A stretch of DNA of 64,000 bases from Neogemmobacter tilapiae (GTDB lineage: Bacteria; Pseudomonadota; Alphaproteobacteria; Rhodobacterales; Rhodobacteraceae), in contig NZ_BMYJ01000004.1 in the NCBI RefSeq assembly GCF_014652215.1, positions 1 to 64,000 on the forward strand, read 5' to 3'. How positions within the stretch are numbered: position 1 is the first letter of the stretch; every line of letters starts with the position of its first letter. Position numbers and translations under genes: made by a program. A model generated the notes under the pieces. That model was not told where the DNA came from, did not search any database, and saw only the letters and a program-made list of their open reading frames with translations. Positions 1 through 12,212 of the stretch are shown piece by piece.

Positions 1-116
1 GCACCGGCGAGGAAGAGCTGCTCCCGATCTCTGACAACAAAAGGCACCCGACAGAGCGGGTGCATTTTGGGGAGGTGACGCTGATCGGGCGGGTGGCGTG
101 GTGGGGGCATACGAAT
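1..116. repeat. Left copy of exact 116-bp direct repeat flanking the island
   Basis: Bases 1-116 are identical to 9461-9576. Identity starts at the first base of the window, so the true left boundary may lie further left. Together the two copies bracket about 9.3 kb of accessory genes. Confidence 0.95.
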
Positions 117-125
117 AGAGAGTGA
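1..125 (+). CDS. C-terminal fragment of S24/LexA-like repressor (partial)
   Basis: Reading from base 3, 40 codons end at a TGA at 123-125; the start lies beyond the left edge. The peptide contains 'LLPISDN', 'TLIGRVAWW' and ends 'GHTNRE'. This resembles the last strand region of S24-family phage repressors (a 'SDN' turn followed by 'xIGRVVW'). The same peptide is encoded again at 9461-9588. The nucleotides are identical up to base 116 and then differ only synonymously, so the reading frame was under selection at some time. A hairpin-like GC palindrome lies inside at 44-62. The family assignment rests on a short stretch and is tentative. Confidence 0.4.
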   Translation, partial: TGEEELLPISDNKRHPTERVHFGEVTLIGRVAWWGHTNRE

Positions 126-208
126 GCCCTGCCCCTCAAAGCGAAAAATGTACTCTTGATCAGCATTGACTCTTAAAGAGTTGGCAACGAAAGTCTAAAA
201 AACTCAGA

Positions 209-796
209 TTATTCGTTCGGAAGTTCCGAAAATAGTTGAATGGTTTTGTTGCAGCCTCTGCAATTTCCACATGCCACTGTCGCGCGGTGACAGGAAAACG
301 TCCAACCGAGGAGATCTCGAGGCACGCTGCTCTGCTTTACCAACGTAAGTGTGTCTATGGCTATAGCGGGCGCAGTAACTTGAAGTGATGGAAGTTCACA
401 CTGAAGAAGGTCTTGAATGCGGGAAAGGAAGGTCGGTGTTCCGTCTGCATGAACTGCATCCGTTGCGACAGTGCCGATCATTATCTCTTCGAGATCATTT
501 CCTGCGTAACGCATCGCTGCCAAGGTTATGAGAAATTGATTGCGAAAAGGCCATGCCTCGGCGACCTTCGAATGGCTAGCAGCTGCCCGAGCCACCATGT
601 CACCAGCGCCAAGCGCAGATATGTCGGCGGCTATCTGGTCTAATGGCAACCCAAGCCTGTCGGCAAGAAAGACAGCAGATCGTCGTTCTCCGGCTGCTGG
701 AATCTGGCCGTAATCAACAAATGCTAGACGATCAGGTCGATAACTCCAAGCCAGAGCTGTTGACTCCACTCCACCAGAAAACAAGAGTACTTTCAT
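209..796 (-). CDS. QueC-like PP-loop zinc enzyme (7-cyano-7-deazaguanine synthase family)
   Basis: A 195-residue protein of the QueC fold. QueC converts 7-carboxy-7-deazaguanine to preQ0 using ATP and ammonia; relatives in conflict systems use the same adenylation chemistry on other targets. Visible features are the PP-loop 'SGGVES' (residues 7-12), the 'FRNQFL' motif near 84-89, and a C-terminal zinc site with Cys169, Cys176, Cys179 and Cys182 (Cx6Cx2Cx2C, slightly tighter than in classical QueC). It is shorter than housekeeping QueC (about 220-230 residues). It is the last gene of a four-gene minus-strand operon and its ATG overlaps the stop of the kinase gene. No folE, queD or queE is in the window, so it may not serve ordinary queuosine synthesis. 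Confidence 0.8.
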   Translation of the reverse strand: MKVLLFSGGVESTALAWSYRPDRLAFVDYGQIPAAGERRSAVFLADRLGLPLDQIAADISALGAGDMVARAAASHSKVAEAWPFRNQFLITLAAMRYAGNDLEEIMIGTVATDAVHADGTPTFLSRIQDLLQCELPSLQVTAPAIAIDTLTLVKQSSVPRDLLGWTFSCHRATVACGNCRGCNKTIQLFSELPNE

Positions 797-1983
797 GATC
801 TAGCTGCCCACGCTACGTGATAAATTGCTGTTGAGAAGTCGTCGCAGATTTCCATTTCGGGAAACGTCGATAGCGAATGCGCTATGCTAGGAGATCCTTG
901 CGAATATCCAACGATGGGCAATTTCGATCGAAATGCGTCAAATATCCAAAGCATGGTAGCCGTATCCAATTGATCGAGAAGCGCCAAAACCGCTGTTGGA
1001 GAAATCGAGGCTTTGCTCGCAGTTGATACGAACGGATCACCGCGTTCCATAGAGGAAGTCCCCGTTCTTGGCGAGATAGTTACGCCCATCCGGCGAAGAG
1101 CATCTCTTGCCTCATGAAACAACCAAGCACATGGCATCGACGACGTCGATCCCAATACGAGCACAGCGCCTGTGGTGCCGATTGGCGCAGGTAAGAAGTT
1201 CCCTTGAGACGAGGTTTCCGAGGTGCTCACGTGCCGAGTTTCCGCATATCGGGACACACAGCGAGACGCATGATCTGCCGCATCGGCGGGGCGGCGACCG
1301 TCACAAAGCCAGGCGCCCGAAAAAGCGGCTGTAAATATGTCTCCGGTGCCGATCTTATAAACTCGATCCGAACGATAGGCCGGAACAGTAGCCGTTAATT
1401 TGCCATTCTCGTAAACTCGACAGCCGTCGGCACCTGACTTGACGAGAATGACCGAAACATTGGAGCGAGCAGCGATTCGTTTGACCGCTTGCTCTTCGTC
1501 AGGCGCTCGAGAATAACTCAGCACTTCCTCTTGATTTAGGACGACAGCGAGCCGATCTGCGTGGGATCCGTTGGCTTCAAATGGAATAGGGTCTAAGCTT
1601 TGCGGGTCATACACGCAGGAATTTGCCGTGACGATTGCGTCTCCCTCCATCATTCCAAAGCGGAGCACAAACGCCGCATTGATTGTAATGGGCGGAGAAA
1701 TCGAAATTTTGCCGGGGCTATAGATAGGCCGAGAAAGTGGGTGCATGTAGGAAAAATGGATTTGGTCGTTGCTGCTATAAGCAAAGTGCGTAATCCGAGG
1801 TGTGGCCATTATGGTTCGCGCCTCTTGCTGTAGATGAGGCGGGCAATAGTAGTGCCAACGAATTTCTTGTCCGGCATCAGCAAGGGCAATCGCCGCTCGG
1901 CCGCCGGAGCCAAGTATCTCCTCAACCTTGGGAAAACGGCAATTTTCTCCGTACAGACCGCCCGCCACATCAAGGGTTTTCAT
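793..1983 (-). CDS. PfkB-type kinase fused to nucleoside 2-deoxyribosyltransferase-like domain
   Basis: A 396-residue two-domain protein. Residues 1-255 resemble PfkB/ribokinase sugar or nucleoside kinases: an N-terminal 'GGLYGENCRFP' strand, 'ILVKSGADGC' near 179-188 and the catalytic 'GTGDIF' (212-217), where Asp215 is the expected base. Residues 272-395 resemble nucleoside 2-deoxyribosyltransferases ('HEARDALRRMG', then 'ALLDQLDTAT'). The usual catalytic Glu after the D-x-GT motif is not apparent: 'TATMLWIF' replaces the typical GTxxEIG, so this domain may only bind a nucleoside. The gene overlaps both neighbours by ATGA, which implies translational coupling. A role in phosphorylating or sensing modified nucleosides released or consumed by the neighbouring enzymes is inference. 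Confidence 0.65.
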   Translation of the reverse strand: MKTLDVAGGLYGENCRFPKVEEILGSGGRAAIALADAGQEIRWHYYCPPHLQQEARTIMATPRITHFAYSSNDQIHFSYMHPLSRPIYSPGKISISPPITINAAFVLRFGMMEGDAIVTANSCVYDPQSLDPIPFEANGSHADRLAVVLNQEEVLSYSRAPDEEQAVKRIAARSNVSVILVKSGADGCRVYENGKLTATVPAYRSDRVYKIGTGDIFTAAFSGAWLCDGRRPADAADHASRCVSRYAETRHVSTSETSSQGNFLPAPIGTTGAVLVLGSTSSMPCAWLFHEARDALRRMGVTISPRTGTSSMERGDPFVSTASKASISPTAVLALLDQLDTATMLWIFDAFRSKLPIVGYSQGSPSIAHSLSTFPEMEICDDFSTAIYHVAWAARS

Positions 1984-2315
1984 GCGTTCCTAACTTGGAT
2001 AGTGATAGTCGACCCGGATATAGTCAGCACCTCTGCAACATATGCAACTCCGTTCAGCATGCATTCAATGACTTGAACCAGCACTTTTTTCCCGACCAAT
2101 GACCCGACCTGCTCGTTCTCATTGTTACGAAGTTCAATCCGTGGCGGCGGACCTTGATTGTAGTGCAGCCTGAGGTGATCCCCTGTGGTAAGTTGAGCTA
2201 CTAGGTCAGGAACGGGACCGAAAATCTTAGCTTCAAACACAATCTTGCACTTGGCGCCGTTTGATCGCGGATCGCGATCATCGTCGCTGATTACGGGATA
2301 GTTGCTCCCACCCAT
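1980..2315 (-). CDS. Small beta-rich protein of unknown function in the queC-like operon
   Basis: A 111-residue protein starting at ATG 2315, chosen because AGGAG lies 8 bases upstream; an in-frame ATG further upstream (2339) lacks such a site. The sequence is rich in alternating hydrophobic residues ('CKIVFEAKIF', 'GDHLRLHY', 'KKVLVQVI', 'ITIQVRN'), which suggests a small beta-barrel. I do not recognise the family. It sits between the glycosylase and kinase genes and overlaps the latter by four bases, so it is probably a dedicated component, for instance a nucleic-acid-binding or adaptor subunit (inference). Confidence 0.6.
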   Translation of the reverse strand: MGGSNYPVISDDDRDPRSNGAKCKIVFEAKIFGPVPDLVAQLTTGDHLRLHYNQGPPPRIELRNNENEQVGSLVGKKVLVQVIECMLNGVAYVAEVLTISGSTITIQVRNA

Positions 2316-2348
2316 CACACATCTCCTGCATACGTGCATGAGCCGAGT

Positions 2349-3122
2349 TTAGCGCGGCACGTGTGATCTGACCAGTCTCGATCCTCCAGCGCGCATGTCG
2401 TCCCACATGATTGCATCCAAAACAGACGGAGGGTTGCCCAGAGCAGACGAGAACTCAAGAAACCGCTGTTCCAGGCGTGCATAGTCGCGCGGTAGACTGA
2501 TTCCAAATTCAAACAGGCCCATGTACCAGCAGGCGCGGAGGATATGAATGTCGAGGATGGCCACCTCGTTCGATCTCCTCCAATTGCGGGTGATCCAACT
2601 TGCTGTTTTTGGGCCAATCCCAGGAAGGCGCGAAATCTTATCACGGAAATCTAAGTCAGACAGATCATCAAACTTGGTCGAAGAAAGTTGCTCAAGTGAC
2701 GCCGACAAGCGAACAGCCTTCTGGTTTGGGAAACGATAGCGACGTTCATGCCCTTGAACAAGAATGGGTCCGCTCAACAAATCACGAAGGTGTTCCTTAG
2801 AAATGCGCTCGGAACTATCGAAGACACCATTTTCTCGCAGCAGCTGAAACGCTGCGGCATTCACTTCCATAGTTATTCCAAATCCGCCCAGGATGCAGAA
2901 GCCGATTTCCTCAAGAAGACTGCCACAGCTATCAGTGAAGTAGCCATGACCGGTGGCTTCACCTTCGGTGCATCGCATCTGCCAGTAAGCGGGCGTGAAA
3001 AACTGATCCACAGTACCGAAGGGGATGCCGGGAAGTATGTGAGCCCCCCCAACCTTCACCATAGCAGGCGACAAGACGTCGGAATTTTTCTCTTTCGCAT
3101 CGAACATGCATAAAGTATGCAT
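2349..3122 (-). CDS. Ogg-like HhH-GPD DNA glycosylase/AP lyase
   Basis: A protein of up to 257 residues resembling the 8-oxoguanine DNA glycosylase branch of the HhH-GPD superfamily. The helix-hairpin-helix reads 'LPGIGPKTASW' (residues 166-176). Lys172 is the expected Schiff-base nucleophile and Asp191 in 'AILDIHILRA' the expected catalytic Asp, so both catalytic residues of a bifunctional glycosylase/lyase are kept. Such enzymes excise modified purines from DNA. It is the first gene of the minus-strand operon and is divergent from the Xre regulator. Its first ATG (3122) lies within 11-bp tandem repeats; ATG 3107 is an equally good start. With a QueC-like and a TGT-like enzyme nearby, a deazapurine or another modified base is a plausible substrate (inference). 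Confidence 0.75.
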   Translation of the reverse strand: MHTLCMFDAKEKNSDVLSPAMVKVGGAHILPGIPFGTVDQFFTPAYWQMRCTEGEATGHGYFTDSCGSLLEEIGFCILGGFGITMEVNAAAFQLLRENGVFDSSERISKEHLRDLLSGPILVQGHERRYRFPNQKAVRLSASLEQLSSTKFDDLSDLDFRDKISRLPGIGPKTASWITRNWRRSNEVAILDIHILRACWYMGLFEFGISLPRDYARLEQRFLEFSSALGNPPSVLDAIMWDDMRAGGSRLVRSHVPR

Positions 3123-3132
3123 AAAGTATGCA
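3106..3132. promoter_or_regulatory. Tandem operator-like repeats between divergent glycosylase and xre genes
   Basis: The 11-mer ATGCATAAAGT occurs twice head to tail (3106-3116, 3117-3127), followed by a third partial ATGCA. Each unit contains the palindrome ATGCAT, so units are spaced one helical turn apart. The array covers the start codons of both divergent genes. This layout fits a binding site for the adjacent Xre protein, which would repress both promoters; that role is inferred. Confidence 0.6.
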
Positions 3133-3415
3133 GAATGGCAAGAAAAGAGTGAGCACCATTGGTGCTCGCATTAAAAGACACCGCCAAGACGAGGGGTTGG
3201 GACAAGCCGCTCTCGCCCTTCGCCTAGGGATCAGCCAGTCGGCGATCTCCCGCATAGAAAATGGAAGTATTTCAACAGGAAGAGCTCATGACCTGATCCG
3301 TGACTACTTGACGGAGGAAGATCGCAAGCATGGCTTGGACGAGATCTTGCAGAAGATATTTGCATCTCCCGAACTGCGAGATTTCGTTAGCAGAGTACTG
3401 CTAGAAGGGCACTAG
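3128..3415 (+). CDS. Xre-family HTH transcriptional regulator
   Basis: A protein of at most 95 residues with a classical cro/CI-type helix-turn-helix in its first 65 residues ('IGARIKRHRQDEGLGQ', 'LGISQSAISRIENG'). A short helical tail follows ('LDEILQKIFASPELRDF'). The gene is divergent from the Ogg-like operon, and its start lies in or just after the tandem repeat array. GTG 3149 is an alternative start. It is probably the local regulator of the deazaguanine-type genes. A 17-bp perfect palindrome sits within its first codons. Confidence 0.85.
   Translation: MQNGKKRVSTIGARIKRHRQDEGLGQAALALRLGISQSAISRIENGSISTGRAHDLIRDYLTEEDRKHGLDEILQKIFASPELRDFVSRVLLEGH
3151..3167. promoter_or_regulatory. 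17-bp perfect palindrome in the start of the xre gene
   Basis: GAGCACC-att-GGTGCTC is a 7-3-7 palindrome. It could be a second operator for the Xre protein or an RNA hairpin near the start codon. There is no direct evidence for either. Confidence 0.4.
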
Positions 3416-3612
3416 GTCTGCATTTACTATGCACCTTCCATATCCATTCCGCGGTCGCAGTGCTGCATGTTGTCGGCAGCCAATCCGTCGAAGATCCATA
3501 AGGATTGGGTGAGAGAAACATCTGCTTGGAAAAGTGACAAATACGTGCCAGGAATGGTCTTGATCGCAAGCAGGAGCAGAACTTTGCACACCGGGAGGTT
3601 TGTTTAGCCGCC

Positions 3613-4188
3613 ATGTCTCCAGGTCCCCTGAACATAGGAGCGCGCTCCTTTGGCGCGATTTTGTTCGTAGCGTTTGCGTCGACAATTCCTCTATCAAATT
3701 GGCTGATATCGAACGTGGGCACGACTTGCGTCCCCGATGGCCCATGTCTCATTCCTGTTGCACCAGGCATACTTGCTCCGAGCGGGGTGCTGACCATTGG
3801 AGCAGCTTTAGTTCTCAGGGATCTCATTCATAGGTATCTCGGCGCGAACTGGGCAATAGCTGCAATATTGGTCGGTGGTTGCGTGTCGTTGCTTACTGCG
3901 AGCCAAAATCTCGTAATAGCCTCTGTTGCCGCGTTCATGATTTCCGAAATGCTCGATTTTACCGTTTATGTGCCTCTCTCGCGGCGAAACCTTTCCCTTG
4001 CGATCCTAGTGAGCGGTGTAGTCGCAGCTATCGCGGACAGCGTAGTTTTCGTTTTACTGGCATTCGGATCTCTAGATCACGTGACGGGACAGATCATTGG
4101 AAAACTTTGGGCGTCAATAATTGTGGCAATGATCGTGTTTGCAGGAACTCGCCGAAGGGCTATCAGCAGAACAGACATCGGTGCCTAG
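3613..4188 (+). CDS. VUT-family transporter (YhhQ-like queuosine precursor uptake)
   Basis: A 191-residue integral membrane protein with about five or six hydrophobic segments. The signature 'FMISEMLDFTVYVPLSRR' (about residues 111-128) matches the VUT/YhhQ family, whose characterised members import 7-deazaguanine bases such as preQ0, preQ1 or queuine. A GGGAGG lies about 14 bases before the ATG. The gene runs towards the TGT-like gene (convergent, 36 bp apart) and downstream of the Xre gene. A transporter for deazapurine bases next to QueC-like and TGT-like enzymes is the strongest contextual support for a 7-deazaguanine theme in this island. Confidence 0.75.
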   Translation: MSPGPLNIGARSFGAILFVAFASTIPLSNWLISNVGTTCVPDGPCLIPVAPGILAPSGVLTIGAALVLRDLIHRYLGANWAIAAILVGGCVSLLTASQNLVIASVAAFMISEMLDFTVYVPLSRRNLSLAILVSGVVAAIADSVVFVLLAFGSLDHVTGQIIGKLWASIIVAMIVFAGTRRRAISRTDIGA

Positions 4189-4224
4189 AGCACAGCCCGG
4201 CGTTAAAGCTAAGCCTAGCTGGGT

Positions 4225-5205
4225 TCATATTAAGTCCCATACCGCTCGAATGCGTGGTCCACGCTCCCCAAAAGCCTGCTCGATCGACGCGCCCTCCACT
4301 AACTTGATCATCGATTTACGGAGAAGGTCTAGATCGATGAGATTCGCCAGCCGCCGTTTCCACATTACGTCTTCCAATTTAGTCATTGGATCATCGATTG
4401 ATGAATAACTCTGATCATACAGACTGCCAGCTGCCGTGTAAGCATAGCGCAGCCAAGATAAACCATCGAAGATGTCTGCCCCAGCCATAAAGTAAAGAGC
4501 AGACATCGAGGGCTCCAACCCTCCAAATACATGGATAGGAATATGCAGATTCTCTGCGGTAAGGCAGTCTCGGAGTTCGCAGAGAAACTTCAGTCGTTCG
4601 CCCATTGAAGCGCCGATTTCTTTCTCAGTCACACCAATAATTGAGAATTCGGCCAGTTGCTTGGCGTATGGCGCGATTGCTGCAACGTCTAGGGAAGACT
4701 TCTTGCTAACCGGCTTCAGAAGGATGGTGACGGTAAGCCAAGGGAACTGCTTCGCCATTCCTTGTGCTCGCGCGATTTGCTCAGGCATAGGCATTTCGTG
4801 ATCATAGGTGACCGCTACAAGTTCAGTTTTGCTGTCCCAATCAGCAAGAAGAGTATAGTAAAAATCCTCTGACCAACTCCGCGTACTGTCAGACTTAATG
4901 ACGTCGGCAGCAACCCATTGTTGATTCCAAATTTCTTCATAGCCCCCGCTGTCTAACACTACCGCCGGGGACGGCGCTTCATCCAAGTGAGAGAACACGT
5001 CGTAGGGGATGTCAAGGCCAAGGCGATGATACAAGTCATACGCGCTGAGAAGGACTGGAGAGCAAATCTCTTTCAGGGTTTTATCTAAGAAGAGTTGCAG
5101 ACGCTCTGGCGGACGCGCGCGACTTGAGTATGAAGGGATGAGGCAAGGCGTCTCGATGCTCCTGTTCCTCAATTTGATAGACCTTCGGCCCGCCCTGATT
5201 TTCAT
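4225..5205 (-). CDS. TGT/DpdA-like guanine transglycosylase without zinc motif
   Basis: A 326-residue TIM-barrel protein resembling the tRNA-guanine transglycosylase superfamily, which exchanges guanine for a 7-deazapurine; DpdA members act on DNA. Visible motifs are 'LDSGGYE' (84-90, the TGT 'DSGGFQ' loop), 'HVFGGLEP' (225-232, the 'GGL' loop) and 'GADIFDGLSW' (242-251), with Asp247 at the position of the TGT nucleophile. The zinc site CxCxxC...H of tRNA-type TGT is absent, and the C-terminal region is short and helical. This argues against a housekeeping Tgt and for a paralogue with another substrate, such as DNA or a base exchange. It forms its own minus-strand unit convergent with the VUT gene. 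Substrate is unknown. Confidence 0.7.
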   Translation of the reverse strand: MKIRAGRRSIKLRNRSIETPCLIPSYSSRARPPERLQLFLDKTLKEICSPVLLSAYDLYHRLGLDIPYDVFSHLDEAPSPAVVLDSGGYEEIWNQQWVAADVIKSDSTRSWSEDFYYTLLADWDSKTELVAVTYDHEMPMPEQIARAQGMAKQFPWLTVTILLKPVSKKSSLDVAAIAPYAKQLAEFSIIGVTEKEIGASMGERLKFLCELRDCLTAENLHIPIHVFGGLEPSMSALYFMAGADIFDGLSWLRYAYTAAGSLYDQSYSSIDDPMTKLEDVMWKRRLANLIDLDLLRKSMIKLVEGASIEQAFGERGPRIRAVWDLI

Positions 5206-5366
5206 GCTAAACTCCCTTGGAAATCTCCGCTTTTGATCACTCAGCCAAGCGTTTTGCCGTTCATTGACTAGGGATGATGAAGAAAATTTGTTAGTCTCGC
5301 TGGTCTTCCATTCTATCGAATTCGTATGATGCGATCATGGCTTATACTTCAAAGGTGCGGTAAACT

Positions 5367-5963
5367 CTAAGGCGGCGTAGAATCTTCGAAACCTCTTTCT
5401 GCGGTTTCGACACTGCCGCCAGTCCCATTCAAACATAGGCCATACAACGACACCAGTACAACAATACAGCCAAGGGCCCCCATAACACTAAACATCGCCC
5501 GAAACACCTTGCCGTAAGTCCAGTGGCCATTGGGCGCTGCGTCTTTTGTCGAGCTAACCAGTTTTGCATCAACCGGTTCGTACGTGGCGATCACTCTCTC
5601 CGCCTTCTTTATGAGATCCGAGACCCGCTGATCCAGCTTAAAAAAGAGGAATGACAAGCCAGCAAGAATAAGGCCTAGGGCGGCAGTGGTGATTGAATTC
5701 ATAGGAAAATTTTCGAATGCCTTCGCGATCCCTGTTATGAGGAGGCCAGAGAACACTACGTAGAAGTTGAACACGGTTATGCGTTGCTGTGCATGGAGAT
5801 GGAAGTATTTCCAAGCATGATCGAGAGCTCTTCCATCATCCATGATCGCACGATCTCCTAGAATTTCCAGCCATTCTGCCCGGCGAATGGATCTCTGGTC
5901 AATCTTTACTTTGGCGGTACTGCTCGGCCCTACAAGTGTAGTCATGCCAACAGCGTACATCAC
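5367..5963 (-). CDS. Two- to three-span membrane protein, RipA-like
   Basis: A 198-residue protein (or 192 from ATG 5945). After a hydrophilic N-terminus comes 'WKYFHLHAQQRITVFNFYVVFSGLLI', which leads into the first transmembrane segment (about 62-80). A second segment follows near 90-110 and a third near 165-185, with a charged region between. The 'HAQQRxxxFNF' stretch is shared by small membrane proteins often seen in defence islands (RipA-family type), but I cannot confirm the family. It lies upstream of the TGT-like gene on the same strand with a 161-bp gap, so it could be transcribed with it or separately. Confidence 0.55.
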   Translation of the reverse strand: MMYAVGMTTLVGPSSTAKVKIDQRSIRRAEWLEILGDRAIMDDGRALDHAWKYFHLHAQQRITVFNFYVVFSGLLITGIAKAFENFPMNSITTAALGLILAGLSFLFFKLDQRVSDLIKKAERVIATYEPVDAKLVSSTKDAAPNGHWTYGKVFRAMFSVMGALGCIVVLVSLYGLCLNGTGGSVETAERGFEDSTPP

Positions 5964-5975
5964 CTTGAGGTGCCC

Positions 5976-6001
5976 CTAGGCTAGTAGACTAGGCTAGTAG
6001 A
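5976..6001. repeat. 13-bp perfect tandem repeat
   Basis: CTAGGCTAGTAGA occurs twice without a spacer, in the gap between divergent genes (5963 on minus and 6053 on plus). It could be a regulatory site or a slippage product. Confidence 0.6.
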
Positions 6002-6052
6002 CGTTTTGCTGCCTGCGGTGCCCTAAATTTGTCGACGCGCTGACAACTAACT

Positions 6053-6679
6053 TTGGATCAGGGCGACAACGACGTGACAATTGAGGCATCGGAAGCGCGC
6101 CAAGACAAGGCGTCTGGCGTTGTGGTAGGACTTCGATCGCAAGATCGAAATCTCACTCTATCACGGCATGCTCCTATGAGAGAAAACCCACCATTATCCT
6201 CCCGAGCTTGGGAGATGGTATCCTCTGCAGAGAAGTTACGCGACTTTGTTCGGCATGTCCGCGGACCAGAATCGATCTTCATCGATGCCGAGATTCCTTG
6301 GGGTTTCCATATCGCTCAGCCAATTCTCATGGCCCTTTCGATGGAGCTCGCGCTGAAGGCTTGGCGAATTCGAGAAGGTGCAACGAAACCGCAAATTAAG
6401 ACGCACGATCTCCTGTCACTTTTTGAGGGTCTGAGCGAGGCCACGCAGCTACATTTGATACGAGCATGCCCTCGGTTTCTCGAGCAAGGTGCGGCGTGGC
6501 CCCCAACCTATACAAGGGACTTGAGGCGCATTCTGGAGATAAATCGCAATGTCTTTATCGAATGGCGCTATACGCACGAGCAGGATCATCTTGGCTTCGC
6601 CCCACTAGAGTTTGATGATGCCTTGTCAGTCGTTATTGCAGAGTATCGCAAACTCCCGCCCATCATACCCACTTCCTAA
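6053..6679 (+). CDS. HEPN-like domain protein
   Basis: A protein of up to 208 residues. The start is uncertain: TTG 6053, GTG 6074 and ATG 6176 are all in frame and none has a strong ribosome site. The central part ('LSMELALKAWRIREG', 'KTHDLLSLFEGLSE') looks like the first helices of HEPN-superfamily proteins, in which an 'LxxxLKA' helix precedes a 'HDL' turn. Near the C-terminus is 'EWRYTHEQ', a possible active-site R-x2-H variant. HEPN proteins are often RNases or toxins in defence systems. No partner nucleotidyltransferase is seen, so the assignment stays tentative. Confidence 0.5.
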   Translation: MDQGDNDVTIEASEARQDKASGVVVGLRSQDRNLTLSRHAPMRENPPLSSRAWEMVSSAEKLRDFVRHVRGPESIFIDAEIPWGFHIAQPILMALSMELALKAWRIREGATKPQIKTHDLLSLFEGLSEATQLHLIRACPRFLEQGAAWPPTYTRDLRRILEINRNVFIEWRYTHEQDHLGFAPLEFDDALSVVIAEYRKLPPIIPTS

Positions 6680-6757
6680 AAGTAAACTTGGCCCTCCATC
6701 TCCCACGACAAACCCCCGGCGTTCCTGCTACGTTCCTCATTCGCACGCGAGGAACAA

Positions 6758-7564
6758 ATGCACCCACAACTTACCCCGATCTCCCCGATTTCCCCGGCCG
6801 CGCCATGGCTTGGTGGCAAACGAGCTCTTGCAAAGCGCATATGCGCCAAAATTGATGCCATTCCCTGCGAAACCTATGCCGAGCCCTTCGTCGGCATGGG
6901 CGGCATCTTCCTGCGCCGATCGGCGAAGCCGCGGGCGGAGGTGATCAACGACAAGGGTCGGGACGTCGCGAACTTCTTCCGGATCCTGCAGCGTCACTAT
7001 GTCGCTTTTCTAGACATGCTGCGGTTTCAGATCACGGTCCGGGCGGAATTCAACCGTCTGGTCGCCACCGACCCAGAAACGCTGACCGACCTCGAGCGCG
7101 CCGCGCGGTTCTTGTACCTTCAGCGCTGCGCCTTTGGCGGCAAGGTGTCCGGCCGGAACTTTGGAGTTTCGGTCGGCCGGGCAGGGCGGTTCAACCTGAC
7201 CAGCCTCGAGCCGATGCTCGAGGATCTGCATAGCCGCCTGGCGGGCGTCATCATTGAATGCTTGGACTACGGCGATTTCCTGACCCGTTACGACACGCCT
7301 CAAACCCTCTTCTACCTCGACCCGCCCTATTGGGGCTGCGAGACCGACTATGGCAAAGCGATGTTCGAGCGGGCGGATTTCATGCGGCTGAGCGGGTGTT
7401 TGCAGAGCCTTAAAGGCCGATTTATCCTCTCGATCAATGACGTGCCCGAGATCCGCGCGATCTTCGCCTGGGCCGCGATCGAGGAGGTCAACACGATCTA
7501 CACGATCAACTCCAGTCTTGACGCGAGAGTGCCACGCGGCGAGCTTCTCATCAGTAGCATTTGA
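6758..7564 (+). CDS. D12-class adenine-N6 DNA methyltransferase (Dam-like)
   Basis: A 268-residue protein with the D12 (Dam) architecture: the AdoMet-binding 'PWLGGKRAL' near residues 15-23, 'YAEPFVGMGGIFL' (45-57), and the catalytic 'DPPY' at about 188-191 within 'LFYLDPPYWG'. GAGGA precedes the ATG. No restriction endonuclease gene is adjacent, so it is an orphan or phage-type methylase. It may protect island DNA or an associated phage (inference). It lies within the repeat-bounded island. Confidence 0.9.
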   Translation: MHPQLTPISPISPAAPWLGGKRALAKRICAKIDAIPCETYAEPFVGMGGIFLRRSAKPRAEVINDKGRDVANFFRILQRHYVAFLDMLRFQITVRAEFNRLVATDPETLTDLERAARFLYLQRCAFGGKVSGRNFGVSVGRAGRFNLTSLEPMLEDLHSRLAGVIIECLDYGDFLTRYDTPQTLFYLDPPYWGCETDYGKAMFERADFMRLSGCLQSLKGRFILSINDVPEIRAIFAWAAIEEVNTIYTINSSLDARVPRGELLISSI

Positions 7565-7797
7565 ATCCCGGCTCGCTGTCTTCGCAAAATACACGAAGGT
7601 CTGAGCTGCTGCCCGGAAATTGCAAGAAAGTCTGCACTCGGACTTTTCAACTTTGGGGCATACTTGCGAAACCTTGGCAGCCGGAGCGAAATACATTGCC
7701 ATCTATCGCGTCTAACTGTCAGAAAGGGCTTTTGACCCCTCGACACGAACTCTCTTGCCCATCAAGCTGGCGGTTGCGGCATTCAAAGAGGAGCAAT

Positions 7798-8169
7798 GTG
7801 TTGCAGCCTTACACGTGCAAAAATGGTGAAGTCGTTCAGATCGCCATAGACGAGGATGATTCCTATGAGGCCAAGGTCTTCGGGCCCAATGGCGAGAAGA
7901 TCGGCGGAATGGTGTTTCATTTGTATGAGGATTACGATACTTACCTCAAGTTGACTTGGATGTACCTCGACGTAAATAATCCTCGCTGGAAGCGCCAAGG
8001 GATCGGCCGTGAAATTTTATTGAGAGTTAAGGCTGCCTCCGACCTTCCGATCACAGCGAGTTCCAATGACGGTCAAAGGCGGGACGACGGTAGTCATCTG
8101 ACCGGCGATGGTCCGGCTTTTGTTGCGAAGATGCGCCAAGATGGTATCATCGCGAACGATCATACTTAG
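7798..8169 (+). CDS. GNAT-like acetyltransferase-fold protein
   Basis: About 123 residues. I place the start at GTG 7798, or TTG 7801 which has better spacing, because AGAGGAG lies at 7788-7794; the in-frame open region upstream back to 7561 has no protein-like character. The core has 'DSYEAKVFGPNGEKIGGMVFH', then 'WMYLDVNNPRWKRQGIGREILLRV', where 'QGIGREIL' resembles the acetyl-CoA-binding R/Q-x-x-G-x-G/A loop of GNAT enzymes. It is short for a full GNAT domain. The substrate is unknown, and the 230 bp upstream contain no gene. Confidence 0.5.
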   Translation: MLQPYTCKNGEVVQIAIDEDDSYEAKVFGPNGEKIGGMVFHLYEDYDTYLKLTWMYLDVNNPRWKRQGIGREILLRVKAASDLPITASSNDGQRRDDGSHLTGDGPAFVAKMRQDGIIANDHT

Positions 8170-8667
8170 CGACACTCGCTTGTCGGTCACAACCGGTCGG
8201 CCATCGCCAGCCACAACTCAAGAGGCCCACACGCTGAGCTTCTGATCAACCGGATGGCATAAAGAGTCCGATAATCCGTTGTATGTTGAGTGATCGAGAT
8301 GGGCAGCTGCAGCTACGCCTTTCCTTTTGTATACAAAGACTTCTGCTGAACATGCAAATGGCGGAGCACCTTCCGACGCCATTTGCATGTTCGAGGTCTC
8401 AATTTGCCGAACCTCCTTTGGCACGCGCTGCGAACAGATGATCGTTATTGAATTAATTCAAATATTTAAACGTTTCGCGCCGCGAGCCTCCGACAACTAA
8501 GTTCGCTGTCCATAGGTGAGCCAATTGCCCCAACTAGAGCTGGCCTGCCGACTTAGAAAACGAGCGCTACACTTCGCCTAGATGGCCCAGAAAGGCCTTG
8601 TTTACATGATGTTTCCGCCTACTTCCACCATCGTCCGAGGCCTTCCGGCGTCCTGCGAGGCTTGGTG
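8170..8667. other. Non-coding stretch with long inverted repeat
   Basis: No convincing gene is seen here. It contains a 16-bp inverted repeat (8348-8392), an A+T-rich segment near 8450-8475 and, at its end, one copy of an 83-bp dispersed repeat (8592-8674). A 68-codon open frame at 8218-8424 on the minus strand includes the inverted repeat and is not protein-like. Confidence 0.6.
8348..8392. repeat. Perfect 16-bp inverted repeat with 13-bp loop
   Basis: The arms GAACATGCAAATGGCG (8348-8363) and its exact complement (8377-8392) could form a very stable hairpin. There is no U-tract on either side, so it is not a canonical terminator. It could be a recombination site, a small structured RNA or the end of an element. 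Confidence 0.75.
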
Positions 8668-8674
8668 TCAAAGC
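8592..8674. repeat. 83-bp dispersed repeat, copy 1
   Basis: This segment matches 12269-12351 with only four or so differences. The two copies flank the SUKH genes and the GH5-RTX gene in direct orientation. It may be the remnant end of a mobile element, although no transposase is visible. Confidence 0.85.
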
Positions 8675-9258
8675 ACACGCACCAAGCTGCCATCCTGGGG
8701 CAGTTGGCGCTCAAGATCCGCATGGAACCGGTGAACTTTCGTGCAGTCCATGGCCGTCAGGCTGACGCCGTCGGCAGATTCCTTCGCGCAAAACGGTGGG
8801 TAGGCCAGAATAAGCTGCCCTTCGGGCAGATCGCCTTTTTCCTTGCGAAACTGGATCAACGGCTCAGCACTCAAGGTCGCAACAGGATCGGCCTCCACGG
8901 CTGCAAGAAACTGTTTCAGCGTCAGATTGGTGGCATGAACAGCACCGGTCTCGGCCTCCAGACGAAGGATTGTTCCGTCTGAGAGGAAAAACTGGTCACC
9001 AACGCAATCCTCGGCAAATGGCACCCAGTGGGCCGCGACAGAGGGATATAGAAGGTGGAAGGCATCTTTGCCATGCCAAACCTCTTCGAGAGAGTGCCAA
9101 CGCGGGCTTTGGCAGAGGCCACGGACATGAAGCGCACCACCATACAGGATGAAGCCGTTGATCTGTTCCAGCAGCGCGCCCAAGTTGCTTGGCAAATGGT
9201 CCAGATTGGCTGAGCCATCCAATTCTGGCCCGATATAGGTAACGCCACTGAGGTCCAT
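8668..9258 (-). CDS. SUKH (SMI1/KNR4-like) immunity-type protein
   Basis: A 196-residue soluble protein. The segment 'LLEQINGFILYGGALHVRG' followed by 'SLEEVWHGKDAFHLLYPSV' and 'VPFAEDCVGDQFFLSDG' has the pattern of SUKH/SMI1-KNR4 proteins (N-terminal helix, G-G-L/A strand, then 'PFAxDxxGDxFxLxDG'). Many of these neutralise toxins of contact-dependent or polymorphic systems. A partial second copy of its central coding region lies 327 bp away (9360-9465). No partner toxin is adjacent, so it may be an orphan immunity gene left by recombination. Confidence 0.7.
   Translation of the reverse strand: MDLSGVTYIGPELDGSANLDHLPSNLGALLEQINGFILYGGALHVRGLCQSPRWHSLEEVWHGKDAFHLLYPSVAAHWVPFAEDCVGDQFFLSDGTILRLEAETGAVHATNLTLKQFLAAVEADPVATLSAEPLIQFRKEKGDLPEGQLILAYPPFCAKESADGVSLTAMDCTKVHRFHADLERQLPQDGSLVRVL
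9033..9138. repeat. 106-bp repeat, copy within the SUKH gene
   Basis: Matches 9360-9465 with a single difference (base 9073 versus 9400). This is the intact-gene copy; the other is truncated on both sides. Confidence 0.95.
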
Positions 9259-9359
9259 GTTTCACCTGCCAGGATCCGATCAAAGCAAAGGCTAGCTGGG
9301 TTGGCGGGTCGGCGCAAAGGCCAATGGGCATCGCGCCTTCAACTTTAAGGTCTCACAGT

Positions 9360-9465
9360 CCGCGACAGAGGGATATAGAAGGTGGAAGGCATCTTTGCCG
9401 TGCCAAACCTCTTCGAGAGAGTGCCAACGCGGGCTTTGGCAGAGGCCACGGACATGAAGCGCACC
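9360..9465 (-). pseudogene. SUKH gene fragment
   Basis: 106 bp nearly identical to the middle of the SUKH gene at 8668-9258, encoding 'GALHVRGLCQ' through 'LLYPSVA'. On one side it runs into unrelated sequence. On the other it abuts the second copy of the 116-bp repressor repeat, sharing the bases GCACC at the junction. It cannot make a complete SUKH domain. The junction suggests past recombination between immunity-type gene copies. Confidence 0.8.
9360..9465. repeat. 106-bp repeat, truncated copy
   Basis: Partner of 9033-9138 at an offset of 327 bp, same orientation, one mismatch. Its right end joins the second repressor repeat at the shared bases GCACC. Confidence 0.95.
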
Positions 9466-9576
9466 GGCGAGGAAGAGCTGCTCCCGATCTCTGACAACAA
9501 AAGGCACCCGACAGAGCGGGTGCATTTTGGGGAGGTGACGCTGATCGGGCGGGTGGCGTGGTGGGGGCATACGAAT
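9461..9576. repeat. Right copy of exact 116-bp direct repeat
   Basis: Identical to 1-116. It marks the right end of the accessory island. Confidence 0.97.
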
Positions 9577-9588
9577 CGCGAATGACCC
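9461..9588 (+). pseudogene. S24/LexA-like repressor C-terminal fragment, right copy
   Basis: Encodes the same 40-residue tail as 3-125, ending in 'GHTNRE' and TGA. The upstream part of the gene is missing and replaced by the SUKH fragment. Bases 9461-9576 are identical to 1-116, while the last codons use different synonymous codons. It marks the right limit of the accessory island. Confidence 0.5.
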
Positions 9589-9875
9589 AAAAATGACGGT
9601 CTTGCACCGTTTGTCTTCCGCGAGTTTTGGGGCGTTCTGGCGTCAATCAAACCCCTACAGTGGCATTGTGGATAAGTCGGAAATCGGCTGAGCGGCTGTA
9701 GAATTTTTTTCTCTTGTTTTTCGCATTTTCATGAATCTGCCTCTTGCACCTCCCGCCCTGTGTTGCAACCTTATGTTGTATGTAGTCGCTTGAGTGCGCC
9801 CCGGAAGTGTGAAGACGGAGGTCGCTCAGGCAGTCACCCAACCTAACGGTCGTTCGGCCGAGAATGGGGGTAGCT

Positions 9876-12212
9876 ATGTCGGAAACTTCACACCTGAATA
9901 TCATCAACGTACAAATTTACGCCGAAGACCAAGCCGCTATCGACAAGGCAAATGGCACCTATGATGCCAATATAGCCTCGGATCCGAAGTACTATTTCTG
10001 GCACGGCGATCATCAAACCATTCCAGTCGGTATGTACGGAAAGCCCGAGCTTTTCGTCGACAAGATTGTTGCGGCTCTCCCGACGGTGAACTGCATCCGG
10101 GTCGGCTTTAACAAGAACAGCTTTAACGCAGACGGGAGCCTTCACGAGGACTTTGAAGCGTTCCTTGAGGCGGCTGCTGCCAAAGGGCTGCAGCTGATCC
10201 TCGTGCTGCAGGAAGGGGACGCGCAGCGCCTTGTGGGCACGGCGGAGACGCTTCGAGATGCCCTGACAGGCGAAGTTCTGGCCAACATGAAAGCCGGTTG
10301 GACCAAGATGATGCGCTGGATGGCCGAGCACAGCGATGTAAGGGATGCCGTCTACGGCTGGGAGCTCGTCAACGAACCTGCCACGTATATGAGCGCGATT
10401 GTGCGGCGCGACAACGCGAGCGCAGCGGAGAAGGCCGAGTTTGTCGGTCTGTATGTCAATCATATGAAGCAGCTGGCCGAGATCATCCAGCCGGAGGCTG
10501 ACGAAAAGATCCTTGTCGATCTCTTTGGGTGGGCCGGGCAGAGTGAGATCTTGGCGGAAAAGCTTTTCGGGAACCAGTCGGCAATCGATCTGTTCAGGGC
10601 GGCGTTTGATGATGATCTTGTCTGGTCAGCACATTTCTATGCCGGTTGGCGCGAAACGGCCGAGGCCACAACGCCGTCTCAGATCATTGCCGAGTGGAAG
10701 AAAATGCTCGCGGCTTTGGGTGATGACGATGTTATCCTGACTGAGACGAATGCGCCGGGATCAGAGGTTTTCAATCCATACGCCGAGGGGCAAGACGTCA
10801 CGGCCACAGCCTTAGCATTTGACTGGCTGGCCCAGAACGGGATCGGTATCGGATGGTTCCCAGGCGTCCAAACCGGGGCATCAAACCTGGCCACAATCTG
10901 GTCCAATGGCGCGATCAACTATCTTCACCAAGCCAGCTTGGCTGCAGCTCTCAACGCCTATTCCTACGGCGAGACCAATGATGCGGCAGGCAACGAGATC
11001 TATGATGGGCAAATTCGGCTCGTGGCTGCGAGACTAAGGAATGCGCCCACCGACGTGGACTATTCTAGCAGGTTGTTTGACCCCGTTGGCTATGCGGGCT
11101 TTGCCTTTGGTTCAGACGCATCTGACGCGATTGTTGGCAGCGGACTGGCGAACAACTTTCTTTATGGAGGGGCGGGCGGCGATACGATCACCGGTGCGGC
11201 AAATGACGACTTTCTATTCGGACAAAGTGGCAACGACACGTTGCACAGCAGAGCTGGGAATGACCATCTTTTCGGCGGTGCGGGCCGCGATGTCCTTCAT
11301 GCCGAGGGTGGTTTCACCCGCATGTATGGCGGGCAAGGTTCCGACCATTTCATCTCGAGCGTCGAGGGGCATACTGAAATTGCAGACTTCAACCGTGTGG
11401 CTGGCGATTCATGGAGCTTGTCAGAAGGCGCAACGATCTGCAGCACCTATGCGGTTGATCTGAACGGCGATGGTCGGCGTGAACAGGTGGTAAACTTCTC
11501 AAATGGCGGGACGGTCACGATCTTTGTCGAGGGTGGATCTCCGAGCGCGAACAGACCGAGTGTCGACGCCGATTTCGAAAAGCTACCTTTGGGCTTGTTC
11601 GGCGGAGGTGCAGGCATCGTTTTTGGGATGGCCTCCGACGACAACCTCATAGCGGCGCAAGGACAAGCCACCCTCTTCGGTGGGGCGGGCGACGACTCCC
11701 TTATCGGTGGAACAGAAGCGGACGCTCTGTGGGGAGGCACACAGGATGATTTTATCAGCGGAAAGGCCCGCGGTGACCATCTGTTTGGCGATCAAGGGAA
11801 TGATCTCCTCAGGGGTGACGGGGGTGCTGATACTCTCTATGGCGGTGGTGGAGCAGACCGTCTGCTTGGAGGTGCCGGGGCTGATAGGCTTTTTGGTGGG
11901 CAAGGTGCGGATATCTTGGATGGGAATGGGGGGGGCGACACGCTATCTGGCGGCTCTGGTGCTGACACCTTTGTTTTCTCGAAAGGTGGTGGCGCTGCCA
12001 GAGTTGTCGACTTCCAAACTGACGGAGGAGACAAGGTGGCTGTAGTCGGCTTTCCAGGGCTGAAGAGCCTTTCCGATGTACGAGAGAAGGGGACTGATAC
12101 ATCCGCAGGCTTTTTCTTGAAGCTGGGCGACGAGACCCTTTTGCTCCTCGGCGTGAAGGAAAAAGATCTGGCGGCAAGGAATTTCTTGTTCGGGGACAAT
12201 GGCCTATTCTGA
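9876..12212 (+). CDS. GH5-like glycoside hydrolase with C-terminal RTX repeats
   Basis: A 778-residue protein. The start at ATG 9876 is preferred because GGGGG ends six bases upstream; the overlapping ATG 9864 has no such site. Residues about 1-370 resemble a cellulase/mannanase-type TIM barrel: 'YGWELVNEP' near 163-171 carries the proton donor Glu, and 'VILTETNAPG' near 290 the likely nucleophile Glu. From about residue 420 on there are glycine/aspartate-rich RTX nonapeptides ('GGAGGDTI', 'GQSGNDTL', 'GGGGADRLLGG'), which bind calcium and mark type I secretion. The C-terminus has the hydrophobic tail typical of such substrates. No signal peptide or secretion genes are in the window. It probably acts outside the cell on a polysaccharide. 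It lies between two copies of an 83-bp repeat. Confidence 0.75.
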   Translation: MSETSHLNIINVQIYAEDQAAIDKANGTYDANIASDPKYYFWHGDHQTIPVGMYGKPELFVDKIVAALPTVNCIRVGFNKNSFNADGSLHEDFEAFLEAAAAKGLQLILVLQEGDAQRLVGTAETLRDALTGEVLANMKAGWTKMMRWMAEHSDVRDAVYGWELVNEPATYMSAIVRRDNASAAEKAEFVGLYVNHMKQLAEIIQPEADEKILVDLFGWAGQSEILAEKLFGNQSAIDLFRAAFDDDLVWSAHFYAGWRETAEATTPSQIIAEWKKMLAALGDDDVILTETNAPGSEVFNPYAEGQDVTATALAFDWLAQNGIGIGWFPGVQTGASNLATIWSNGAINYLHQASLAAALNAYSYGETNDAAGNEIYDGQIRLVAARLRNAPTDVDYSSRLFDPVGYAGFAFGSDASDAIVGSGLANNFLYGGAGGDTITGAANDDFLFGQSGNDTLHSRAGNDHLFGGAGRDVLHAEGGFTRMYGGQGSDHFISSVEGHTEIADFNRVAGDSWSLSEGATICSTYAVDLNGDGRREQVVNFSNGGTVTIFVEGGSPSANRPSVDADFEKLPLGLFGGGAGIVFGMASDDNLIAAQGQATLFGGAGDDSLIGGTEADALWGGTQDDFISGKARGDHLFGDQGNDLLRGDGGADTLYGGGGADRLLGGAGADRLFGGQGADILDGNGGGDTLSGGSGADTFVFSKGGGAARVVDFQTDGGDKVAVVGFPGLKSLSDVREKGTDTSAGFFLKLGDETLLLLGVKEKDLAARNFLFGDNGLF

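What the first reader, a model, noticed from the sequence alone, without database searches (positions are those of the whole stretch)
209..5205. Candidate 7-deazaguanine system: QueC-like, Ogg-like glycosylase, PfkB-NDT fusion, VUT transporter and TGT/DpdA-like enzyme under an Xre regulator
Seen: PP-loop and zinc Cys of QueC; catalytic Lys172 and Asp191 of an HhH-GPD glycosylase; PfkB GTGD plus an NDT-like domain; VUT signature; TGT 'DSGG', 'GGL' and 'DIFD' motifs. Four genes form one overlapping operon. Known: QueC makes preQ0, VUT/YhhQ imports deazaguanine bases, TGT and DpdA insert them in tRNA or DNA, and NDT and PfkB act on nucleosides. Inference: the cluster imports, activates, inserts and removes a deazapurine (or similar) base in nucleic acid, or attacks phage DNA with such bases. 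The combination with an Ogg-like glycosylase and PfkB-NDT is not one I know as a described system.
Basis: partly seen in the sequence, partly recalled or inferred. Interest (0 to 1): 0.92.

Follow-up and report, generated by a model that had tools for sequence, protein, structure and literature searches.

The report
Predicted nucleobase-tagged HIRAN immune cassette
A gene cassette found in many bacteria and some archaea looks like an immune system in which a repurposed base-making enzyme attaches a modified DNA/RNA letter to the front end of a small DNA-binding protein, a trick so far shown only in one kind of CBASS defence.

Summary
A 111-aa protein (1980-2315, minus strand, good Shine-Dalgarno) starts MGGS, the N-terminal motif that Cap9, the QueC-like enzyme of type IV CBASS, conjugates to a 7-deazaguanine. 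Its body is predicted to be a HIRAN (DNA-end-binding) domain. Among 108 PfkB-NDT loci from many phyla, this protein is present in 106 and QueC in 103. The start M-[S/G/A/T/C]-G is kept in 102/106 small proteins with QueC in the locus and in 0/5 without QueC (a PurA-like gene fills the slot in four). The TGT-like protein is Cap10-like, not an ordinary tRNA or DNA enzyme, and follows a membrane protein resembling a CBASS effector. Cap10-like TGT occurs only where the NDT half has decayed (window, L132/L133), so NDT and TGT look interchangeable. No CD-NTase was found in the genome. Best reading: a CD-NTase-free relative of type IV CBASS that tags a HIRAN protein with a nucleobase. Conjugation, base identity and defence are inferred, not shown. 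A 2026 paper noted this QueC group beside PfkB-NDT and guessed purine salvage.

The parts
209..796 (-). QueC-like PP-loop ligase (195 aa), 'Cluster 4' type: SGGxES, WPFRN, HADG instead of YPDC, CHx5CxxCxGCxK zinc site
   Evidence: Pfam 1.8e-14; PADLOC QueC 1.2e-15; family profile best PDB match Cap9 9nto 3e-16; clade 100/100 apart from canonical QueC
793..1983 (-). PfkB kinase fused to an NDT-like domain; PfkB GTGD kept (residue 212), NDT motifs lost (from about residue 274)
1980..2315 (-). Small predicted acceptor protein (111 aa): MGGS N-terminus, flexible tail (about 1-20), HIRAN-fold domain (23-111)
   Evidence: SD AGGAG; N-terminal conservation; AF2 pLDDT 84; VIA Z 12.5 to 3k2y, 9.6 to HLTF HIRAN, 8.6 to HamB of Hachiman
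2349..3122 (-). OGG/HhH-GPD DNA glycosylase-lyase, Lys172 and Asp191 present
   Evidence: Pfam Ogg-HhH 1.8e-10; NCBIfam N-glycosylase/DNA lyase 7e-13, below its cut-off; Lys and Asp motifs kept in the commonest variants of 86 aligned homologues
3128..3415 (+). Divergent Xre-type HTH regulator
   Evidence: HTH_31 1.5e-10; same divergent position beside OGG in Roseivivax, Sphingomonas and other loci
3613..4188 (+). VUT/YhhQ-type transporter, possible deazaguanine-base importer
   Evidence: Pfam Vut_1 2e-10; also in cassettes L005, L016, L019
4225..5205 (-). Cap10-like TGT-family protein (Asp85 in DSGGYE, Asp247 in IFDG kept; no Cys cluster like the TGT zinc site)
   Evidence: PADLOC TGT 3.9e-74; only PDB match Cap10 9ntn 8e-41
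5367..5963 (-). 8xMP-like membrane protein, candidate effector paired with the Cap10-like protein
   Evidence: PF24838 1.2e-6, just below its cut-off; compare SLATT-type proteins next to TGT in L124 and in type IV CBASS L115/L123
1..128 (.). Direct repeat, 97% identical to 9461-9588; brackets the segment at the contig end
9461..9588 (.). Second copy of the 128-bp direct repeat

Best explanation
The segment is a mobile immune-type cassette related to type IV CBASS but without a CD-NTase. Step 1 (inferred): the QueC-like protein uses ATP to activate a carboxylated deazaguanine-like base and joins it to the N-terminal amine of the small MGGS HIRAN protein after the initiator Met is removed, as Cap9 does to the CD-NTase CdnD. 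Step 2 (inferred): the protein-bound base is read, or given a sugar, by the PfkB-NDT protein in most systems; in this window NDT has decayed and a Cap10-like TGT takes that place. The OGG-type glycosylase acts on DNA or on the conjugate; VUT may supply the base because this genome appears not to make preQ0. Shown here: gene order, families, motifs, predicted fold, co-occurrence. Not shown: the conjugation, the base, the trigger, protection against phage.
For: QueC family profile matches Cap9 best among solved structures and keeps the Asp that in Cap9 reads the guanine edge (HxDG against YxDC; PMC13279940). The acceptor N-terminus is conserved while the tail behind it is not: relaxed motif in 102/111 small ORFs against at most 21% in the five other families, strict motif 89/111 against 2/435. 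The same start stands on two type IV CBASS CD-NTases (MGGSGGG) and on ThsB-like TIR proteins next to QueC, OGG and TGT (MGGGS); published QatB starts MGTS (PMC13279940). Motif tracks QueC: 102/106 with QueC, 0/5 without (Fisher 1e-6). HIRAN fold. TGT is Cap10-like and elsewhere lies beside or fused to effector-type domains: SLATT-like in L124, TIR in L132. Among PfkB loci Cap10-like TGT occurs only where NDT is decayed; the other TGT systems read, L115, L123 and L124, have no PfkB-NDT. Some loci adjoin defence genes: AriA/AriB, ThsB, dGTPase, PDC-S15. Patchy, plasmid- and virus-borne.
Against: No experiment. The stacking Tyr of Cap9 is His here, and seven of 51 cassette genomes, this one included, show neither QueD nor canonical QueC, so 7-carboxy-7-deazaguanine (CDG) may not be the base. 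The N-terminal residue is mostly Ser, not Gly as in the Cap9 substrate. The five QueC-less loci are few and partly related. The TGT/NDT exchange rests on two independent cases. PfkB, NDT, OGG and SagB-like dehydrogenase have no shown role in protein conjugation.
Confidence: 0.55

Rival explanations
1. Purine or deazapurine salvage: QueC-like, PfkB and NDT act on free bases and nucleosides, and the small protein is a DNA-binding regulator (reading offered in PMC13329287 for QueC Cluster 4).
For: NDT and PfkB are nucleoside enzyme families; VUT present in four loci; host lacks de novo preQ0 genes by these searches.
Against: Does not explain the N-terminal motif tied to QueC, the flexible tail, the HIRAN protein in 106/108 PfkB-NDT loci, the Cap10 link, patchy distribution or defence neighbours.
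Confidence: 0.15
2. Base insertion into nucleic acid: TGT, or NDT, puts a deazaguanine into DNA or tRNA and OGG removes it.
For: Both TGT Asp residues kept; OGG Lys/Asp kept; adenine methylase linked to OGG in 39/108 loci.
Against: TGT missing from 105/108 loci; the window TGT matches Cap10, which binds a protein N-terminus (abstract of PMC11996544), and lacks the zinc Cys cluster; QueC not canonical.
Confidence: 0.12
3. RiPP-like maturation: the MSGSGG tail is a peptide substrate modified by an ATP-dependent enzyme and a SagB-like dehydrogenase (74/108 loci), giving a heterocycle rather than a nucleobase conjugate.
For: SagB-family match 1.6e-14, below its cut-off; Ser/Gly-rich tail.
Against: No SagB-like gene seen in the window, although the contig ends after QueC; the QueC family ligates base carboxylates and is not a YcaO cyclase; does not explain PfkB-NDT or TGT.
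Confidence: 0.08
4. Remnant of a type IV CBASS that lost its CD-NTase.
For: Cap10-like TGT, QueC, OGG and membrane protein together.
Against: QueC clade and OGG/HIRAN/PfkB-NDT/QueC order are those of about 100 other loci, in which no CD-NTase was noticed; all these ORFs are open in the window.
Confidence: 0.05

Closest known systems
Type IV CBASS (Cap9/Cap10 with CdnD, deazaguanylation; PMC11996544, PMC13279940)
   Same: QueC-like enzyme, Cap10-like TGT, OGG (in L123), Gly-tailed MGGS acceptor, small membrane effector-type protein
   Different: No CD-NTase in locus or genome (positive control); acceptor is a HIRAN protein; PfkB-NDT added; QueC forms its own clade
PF06508 Cluster 4 QueC proteins (PMC13329287)
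   Same: CHx5CxxCxGCxK signature, PfkB-NDT neighbour in about 89%, HTH neighbour, mostly Proteobacteria
   Different: That paper proposed purine salvage; the passages read do not report the small MSG/MGG HIRAN protein, OGG, SagB-like gene or TGT
qatABCD (QatB/QatC)
   Different: QatC has extensions and TxT in place of the base-reading YxD; partner is helical, not HIRAN; no OGG or PfkB-NDT
ThsB-like TIR proteins with QueC (L124, L132, L133, this work)
   Same: QueC, OGG, TGT and an MGGGS-tailed protein; L132/L133 also have PfkB with decayed NDT
   Different: Tailed protein is a ThsB-like TIR; TGT fused to a second TIR domain in L132
Hachiman HamB
   Same: Contains a HIRAN-like domain (VIA Z 8.6)
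   Different: Helicase-nuclease system; no QueC, no Gly tail known to me

Membership tests
Type IV CBASS | CD-NTase (SMODS) gene in the operon | tested here: not met
   No PF18144 match in the whole genome; the model recognises the L115 CD-NTase at 9e-11
Type IV CBASS | Cap9-like QueC | tested here: inconclusive
   Best PDB match Cap9 and PADLOC QueC 1e-15, but clade separate from the two CBASS Cap9 sequences
Type IV CBASS | Cap10-like TGT | tested here: met
   PADLOC 3.9e-74; Cap10 9ntn 8e-41 as sole PDB match
Type IV CBASS | NDG conjugation to an N-terminal glycine | not testable with these tools
   Motif present; chemistry needs mass spectrometry
Canonical QueC (preQ0 synthase) | TIGR00364 score over cut-off, YPDC motif | tested here: not met
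   36 bits against 150; HADG instead of YPDC
QueC Cluster 4 (PMC13329287) | CHx5CxxCxGCxK and PfkB-NDT neighbour | tested here: met
Queuine tRNA-ribosyltransferase / DpdA | Recognised by TGT family models; zinc-site Cys cluster | tested here: not met
   18 bits against Pfam cut-off 26.3; no Cys cluster; DpdA itself was not compared
HIRAN domain | HIRAN fold | tested here: met
   Foldseek and VIA top rows are 3k2y and HIRAN structures, Z 8 to 12.5; by sequence only a weak Pfam hit in one archaeal homologue (0.011)
qatABCD | QatA ATPase and QatD TatD nuclease genes | not tested
   Not seen among the genes read near the cassette; no dedicated QatA/QatD search was run
Anti-phage defence system | Protection in a plaque or plasmid assay | not testable with these tools
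   Only genomic context

The most novel reading that the evidence does not exclude
The cassette makes a protein-borne nucleotide: QueC ties a guanine-like base to the tail of a DNA-end-binding HIRAN protein, NDT (or Cap10-like TGT) joins the base to a deoxyribose or exchanges it into nucleic acid, PfkB phosphorylates the sugar, and OGG can cut it out again. That would let the cell covalently tag or block invading DNA with a protein. More widely, a Gly-rich N-terminal tail plus a QueC ligase would be a portable immune module used on CD-NTase, TIR, HIRAN and QatB proteins.
Probability: 0.15. Interest if true: 0.95.

Novelty: new variant of a known kind. Interest (0 to 1): 0.8.

Why it matters
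Nucleobase-protein conjugation has been shown only in type IV CBASS and suspected in Qat. If the same chemistry acts on a HIRAN protein in a widespread system with no cyclic-nucleotide enzyme, it becomes a general way of controlling immune proteins rather than a CBASS oddity. The apparent exchange of NDT for Cap10-like TGT makes the open question of what Cap10 does to the modified tail directly testable, since both families break and make base-sugar bonds. It also replaces a 'purine salvage' label on a group of QueC proteins.

Tried and rejected
Tested whether the cluster is a queuosine or DNA-deazaguanine pathway: no QueD and no canonical QueC over cut-off in the genome; a separate normal TGT exists on contig C1. 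Looked for a CD-NTase by SMODS: none. Checked CDG supply in 51 cassette genomes: QueD missing in 13, but six of those have canonical QueC, so absence by the PTPS model alone misleads; seven lack both. VUT was found in all of those seven but G719, and all seven have TGT. No Rfam match, so no preQ1 riboswitch by that test, in 1-12000. Looked for prior reports of the combination: only PMC13329287; three computational surveys of nucleotide-based conflict systems are not held, so an earlier mention there cannot be excluded. Redundancy: several loci are near-copies by their printed sequences or scores (L026/L027, L047/L050, L065/L071), so counts of loci are not counts of independent events.
Full report
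WHAT IS THERE. The window is the start of contig C4 of a 3.62-Mb genome. On the minus strand, in order of transcription, come OGG-like glycosylase (2349-3122), a small ORF, PfkB-NDT (793-1983) and QueC-like (209-796); on the plus strand an Xre regulator and a VUT transporter; then, minus strand, a TGT-family gene (4225-5205) preceded by an 8xMP-type membrane protein (5367-5963). The small ORF is best read from the ATG at 2315, which has AGGAG seven bases upstream, rather than from 2339, where I see no such site. It then starts MGGSNYPVISDDD. A 128-bp direct repeat (1-128 and 9461-9588, 97%) brackets the segment, and G+C is 0.50-0.58 up to 13 kb against 0.59-0.65 from 13 to 20 kb with one bin at 0.585, as for an acquired island.

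CONSERVED CASSETTE. QueC homologues at 38-50% identity lie on 24 plasmids of alpha-, beta- and gammaproteobacteria, Synechocystis and haloarchaea. A scan of genome contigs with the PfkB-NDT alignment kept 80 loci from Pseudomonadota, Bacteroidota, Verrucomicrobiota, Myxococcota, Melainabacteria and others. Profiles built here found, in 108 loci with PfkB-NDT, the small protein in 106, QueC in 103, OGG in 91, a SagB-like dehydrogenase in 74, a D12 adenine methylase in 39, dGTPase in 16, VUT in 4 and Cap10-like TGT in 3 (SagB). The small protein stands directly before PfkB-NDT in the loci printed. The profiles were trained partly on these families, and several loci are near-copies, so these are association counts, not independent events. 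The cassette is patchy: 2 of 385 genomes of the class for QueC; five viral contigs carry QueC with the small protein and PfkB-NDT, and a sixth shows QueC at its contig end.

THE SMALL PROTEIN. Its N-terminus is conserved while the stretch behind it varies in length and content. Position 3 is Gly by selection and position 2 was limited to S, G, A, C or T, but positions 4 to 6 were free and are mostly Ser/Gly. Dominant form MSGSGG; haloarchaea MGGGG, MGGGS, MCGGG; the window's nearest relatives L026/L027 MGGSGG. Two type IV CBASS CD-NTases fetched here begin MGGSGGG, and the literature gives MGGS for the Cap9 substrate and MGTS for QatB (PMC13279940). In five loci QueC is absent; in four of them (L080, L090, L091, L094) the slot holds a PurA-like protein (L094 Pfam 1.7e-41; others judged from the sequence printed), while L099's contig ends there. 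None of the five small proteins has the motif: 102/106 against 0/5, Fisher 1e-6. Within Bacteroidota alone the split is five of five against none of four by my reading.

FOLD. AlphaFold2 gives mean pLDDT 84 with a low-confidence tail of about 20 residues and a folded domain from 23 to 111. Foldseek and VIA rank 3k2y and HIRAN domains of HLTF, Rad5 and HamB of the Hachiman defence system first (Z 12.5 to 8.2). HLTF's HIRAN was solved with DNA; DNA-end binding here is an inference.

QUEC AND TGT. The QueC family profile finds Cap9 first among solved chains (3e-16), then QueC (4.5e-14). YPDC is replaced by HxDG: by alignment the Asp that in Cap9 reads the guanine edge is kept, the stacking Tyr becomes His (roles from PMC13279940). 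In QatC both positions are Thr. These QueCs form one clade (100/100) apart from canonical, CBASS, TIR-type and a further divergent type (the tree has only four canonical and two Cap9 rows). The TGT-like protein matches only Cap10 among solved chains (8e-41) and PADLOC's TGT model (3.9e-74); it keeps two Asp corresponding by motif to the DSGG and FD sites (Asp280 is the nucleophile of Z. mobilis Tgt, PMC3660597; its match to Asp247 is my reading of the motif), but has no Cys cluster.

A REPLACEMENT PATTERN. Primary PfkB-NDT copies keep the NDT motifs, apart from the window, L132, L133 and one broken gene (L052); four further rows failed only my strict pattern and look intact on reading; extra decayed copies in L056, L067, L076 and L126 stand beside an intact one. 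The window, L132 and L133 are also the only PfkB loci with a Cap10-like TGT. Systems with TGT and no PfkB-NDT are L115, L123 (CBASS) and L124. L132 and L133 are near-identical, so this is two independent cases. In L132 the TGT is fused to a TIR domain; in L124 it follows a SLATT-like membrane protein (my reading of the sequence); in the window it follows an 8xMP protein. I infer that TGT is a reader that couples the tagged protein to an effector, or an enzyme acting on the tag, and that NDT does the equivalent elsewhere.

WIDER MODULE. L124, L132 and L133 carry QueC, OGG and TGT with a ThsB-like TIR protein that starts MGGGS. L125 and L134 carry a divergent PfkB-NDT and QueC with small proteins starting MGSTGSG and MGSSGSG. 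So a Gly/Ser-rich N-terminal tail beside a QueC-family enzyme recurs on several unrelated proteins.

BASE SUPPLY. This genome shows no QueD, no canonical QueC over cut-off, a normal TGT and two VUT genes. Seven of 51 cassette genomes lack both QueD and canonical QueC. Hence 7-carboxy-7-deazaguanine made in the cell by the usual route is unlikely to be the base in all hosts; imported base or another carboxylated purine is possible.

DEFENCE. Selected neighbours match AriA/AriB of PARIS (L075), ThsB (L011), dGTPase (L012) and the PADLOC candidate PDC-S15 (L067); these were picked by eye, so no rate of defence-island placement is claimed. None of the window's PfkB-NDT, small protein or OGG matches any PADLOC model.

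VERDICT. The most probable reading is a CD-NTase-free relative of type IV CBASS in which a HIRAN protein is tagged with a nucleobase. The chemistry is established in one system and inferred here.

Noticed in passing
L080, L090, L091, L094: QueC's place after PfkB-NDT is taken by a PurA (adenylosuccinate synthetase)-like protein, another purine-plus-amine ligase, and the small protein lacks the M[SG]G start.
   Followed up: partly
L124:6376-9187; L132:2652-7063; L133: QueC-OGG-TGT cassettes whose tailed protein is a ThsB-like TIR (MGGGS start); in L132 the TGT domain is fused to a second TIR domain. May be an undescribed Thoeris/CBASS-IV hybrid.
   Followed up: partly
L008, L009, L011, L012 and about 35 further loci: A D12 adenine methylase gene overlaps or adjoins the OGG gene on the strand opposite the operon, as if methylation protected own DNA from the glycosylase; the window also has a D12 methylase at 6758-7564.
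   Followed up: no
L075:9807-11719 and L086: An AriA/AriB (PARIS-like) pair directly follows QueC in L075, and a similar-looking pair in L086, where no OGG or SagB-like gene was found.
   Followed up: partly
L056, L067, L076, L126: Two small-protein/PfkB pairs in tandem; the second PfkB has a decayed NDT half, and in L067 an FRG-type (PDC-S15) gene follows.
   Followed up: partly
L010, L020, L021: Haloarchaeal versions of the small protein are longer, with an apparent tandem repeat of the barrel domain seen in L010 and L020.
   Followed up: no
window 6053-6679: Protein with a weak HEPN match (0.003) between the membrane protein and the D12 methylase; possible further defence gene.
   Followed up: no
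window 9033-9138 and 9360-9465: A second, 106-bp direct repeat (99%) close to the island-end repeat.
   Followed up: no
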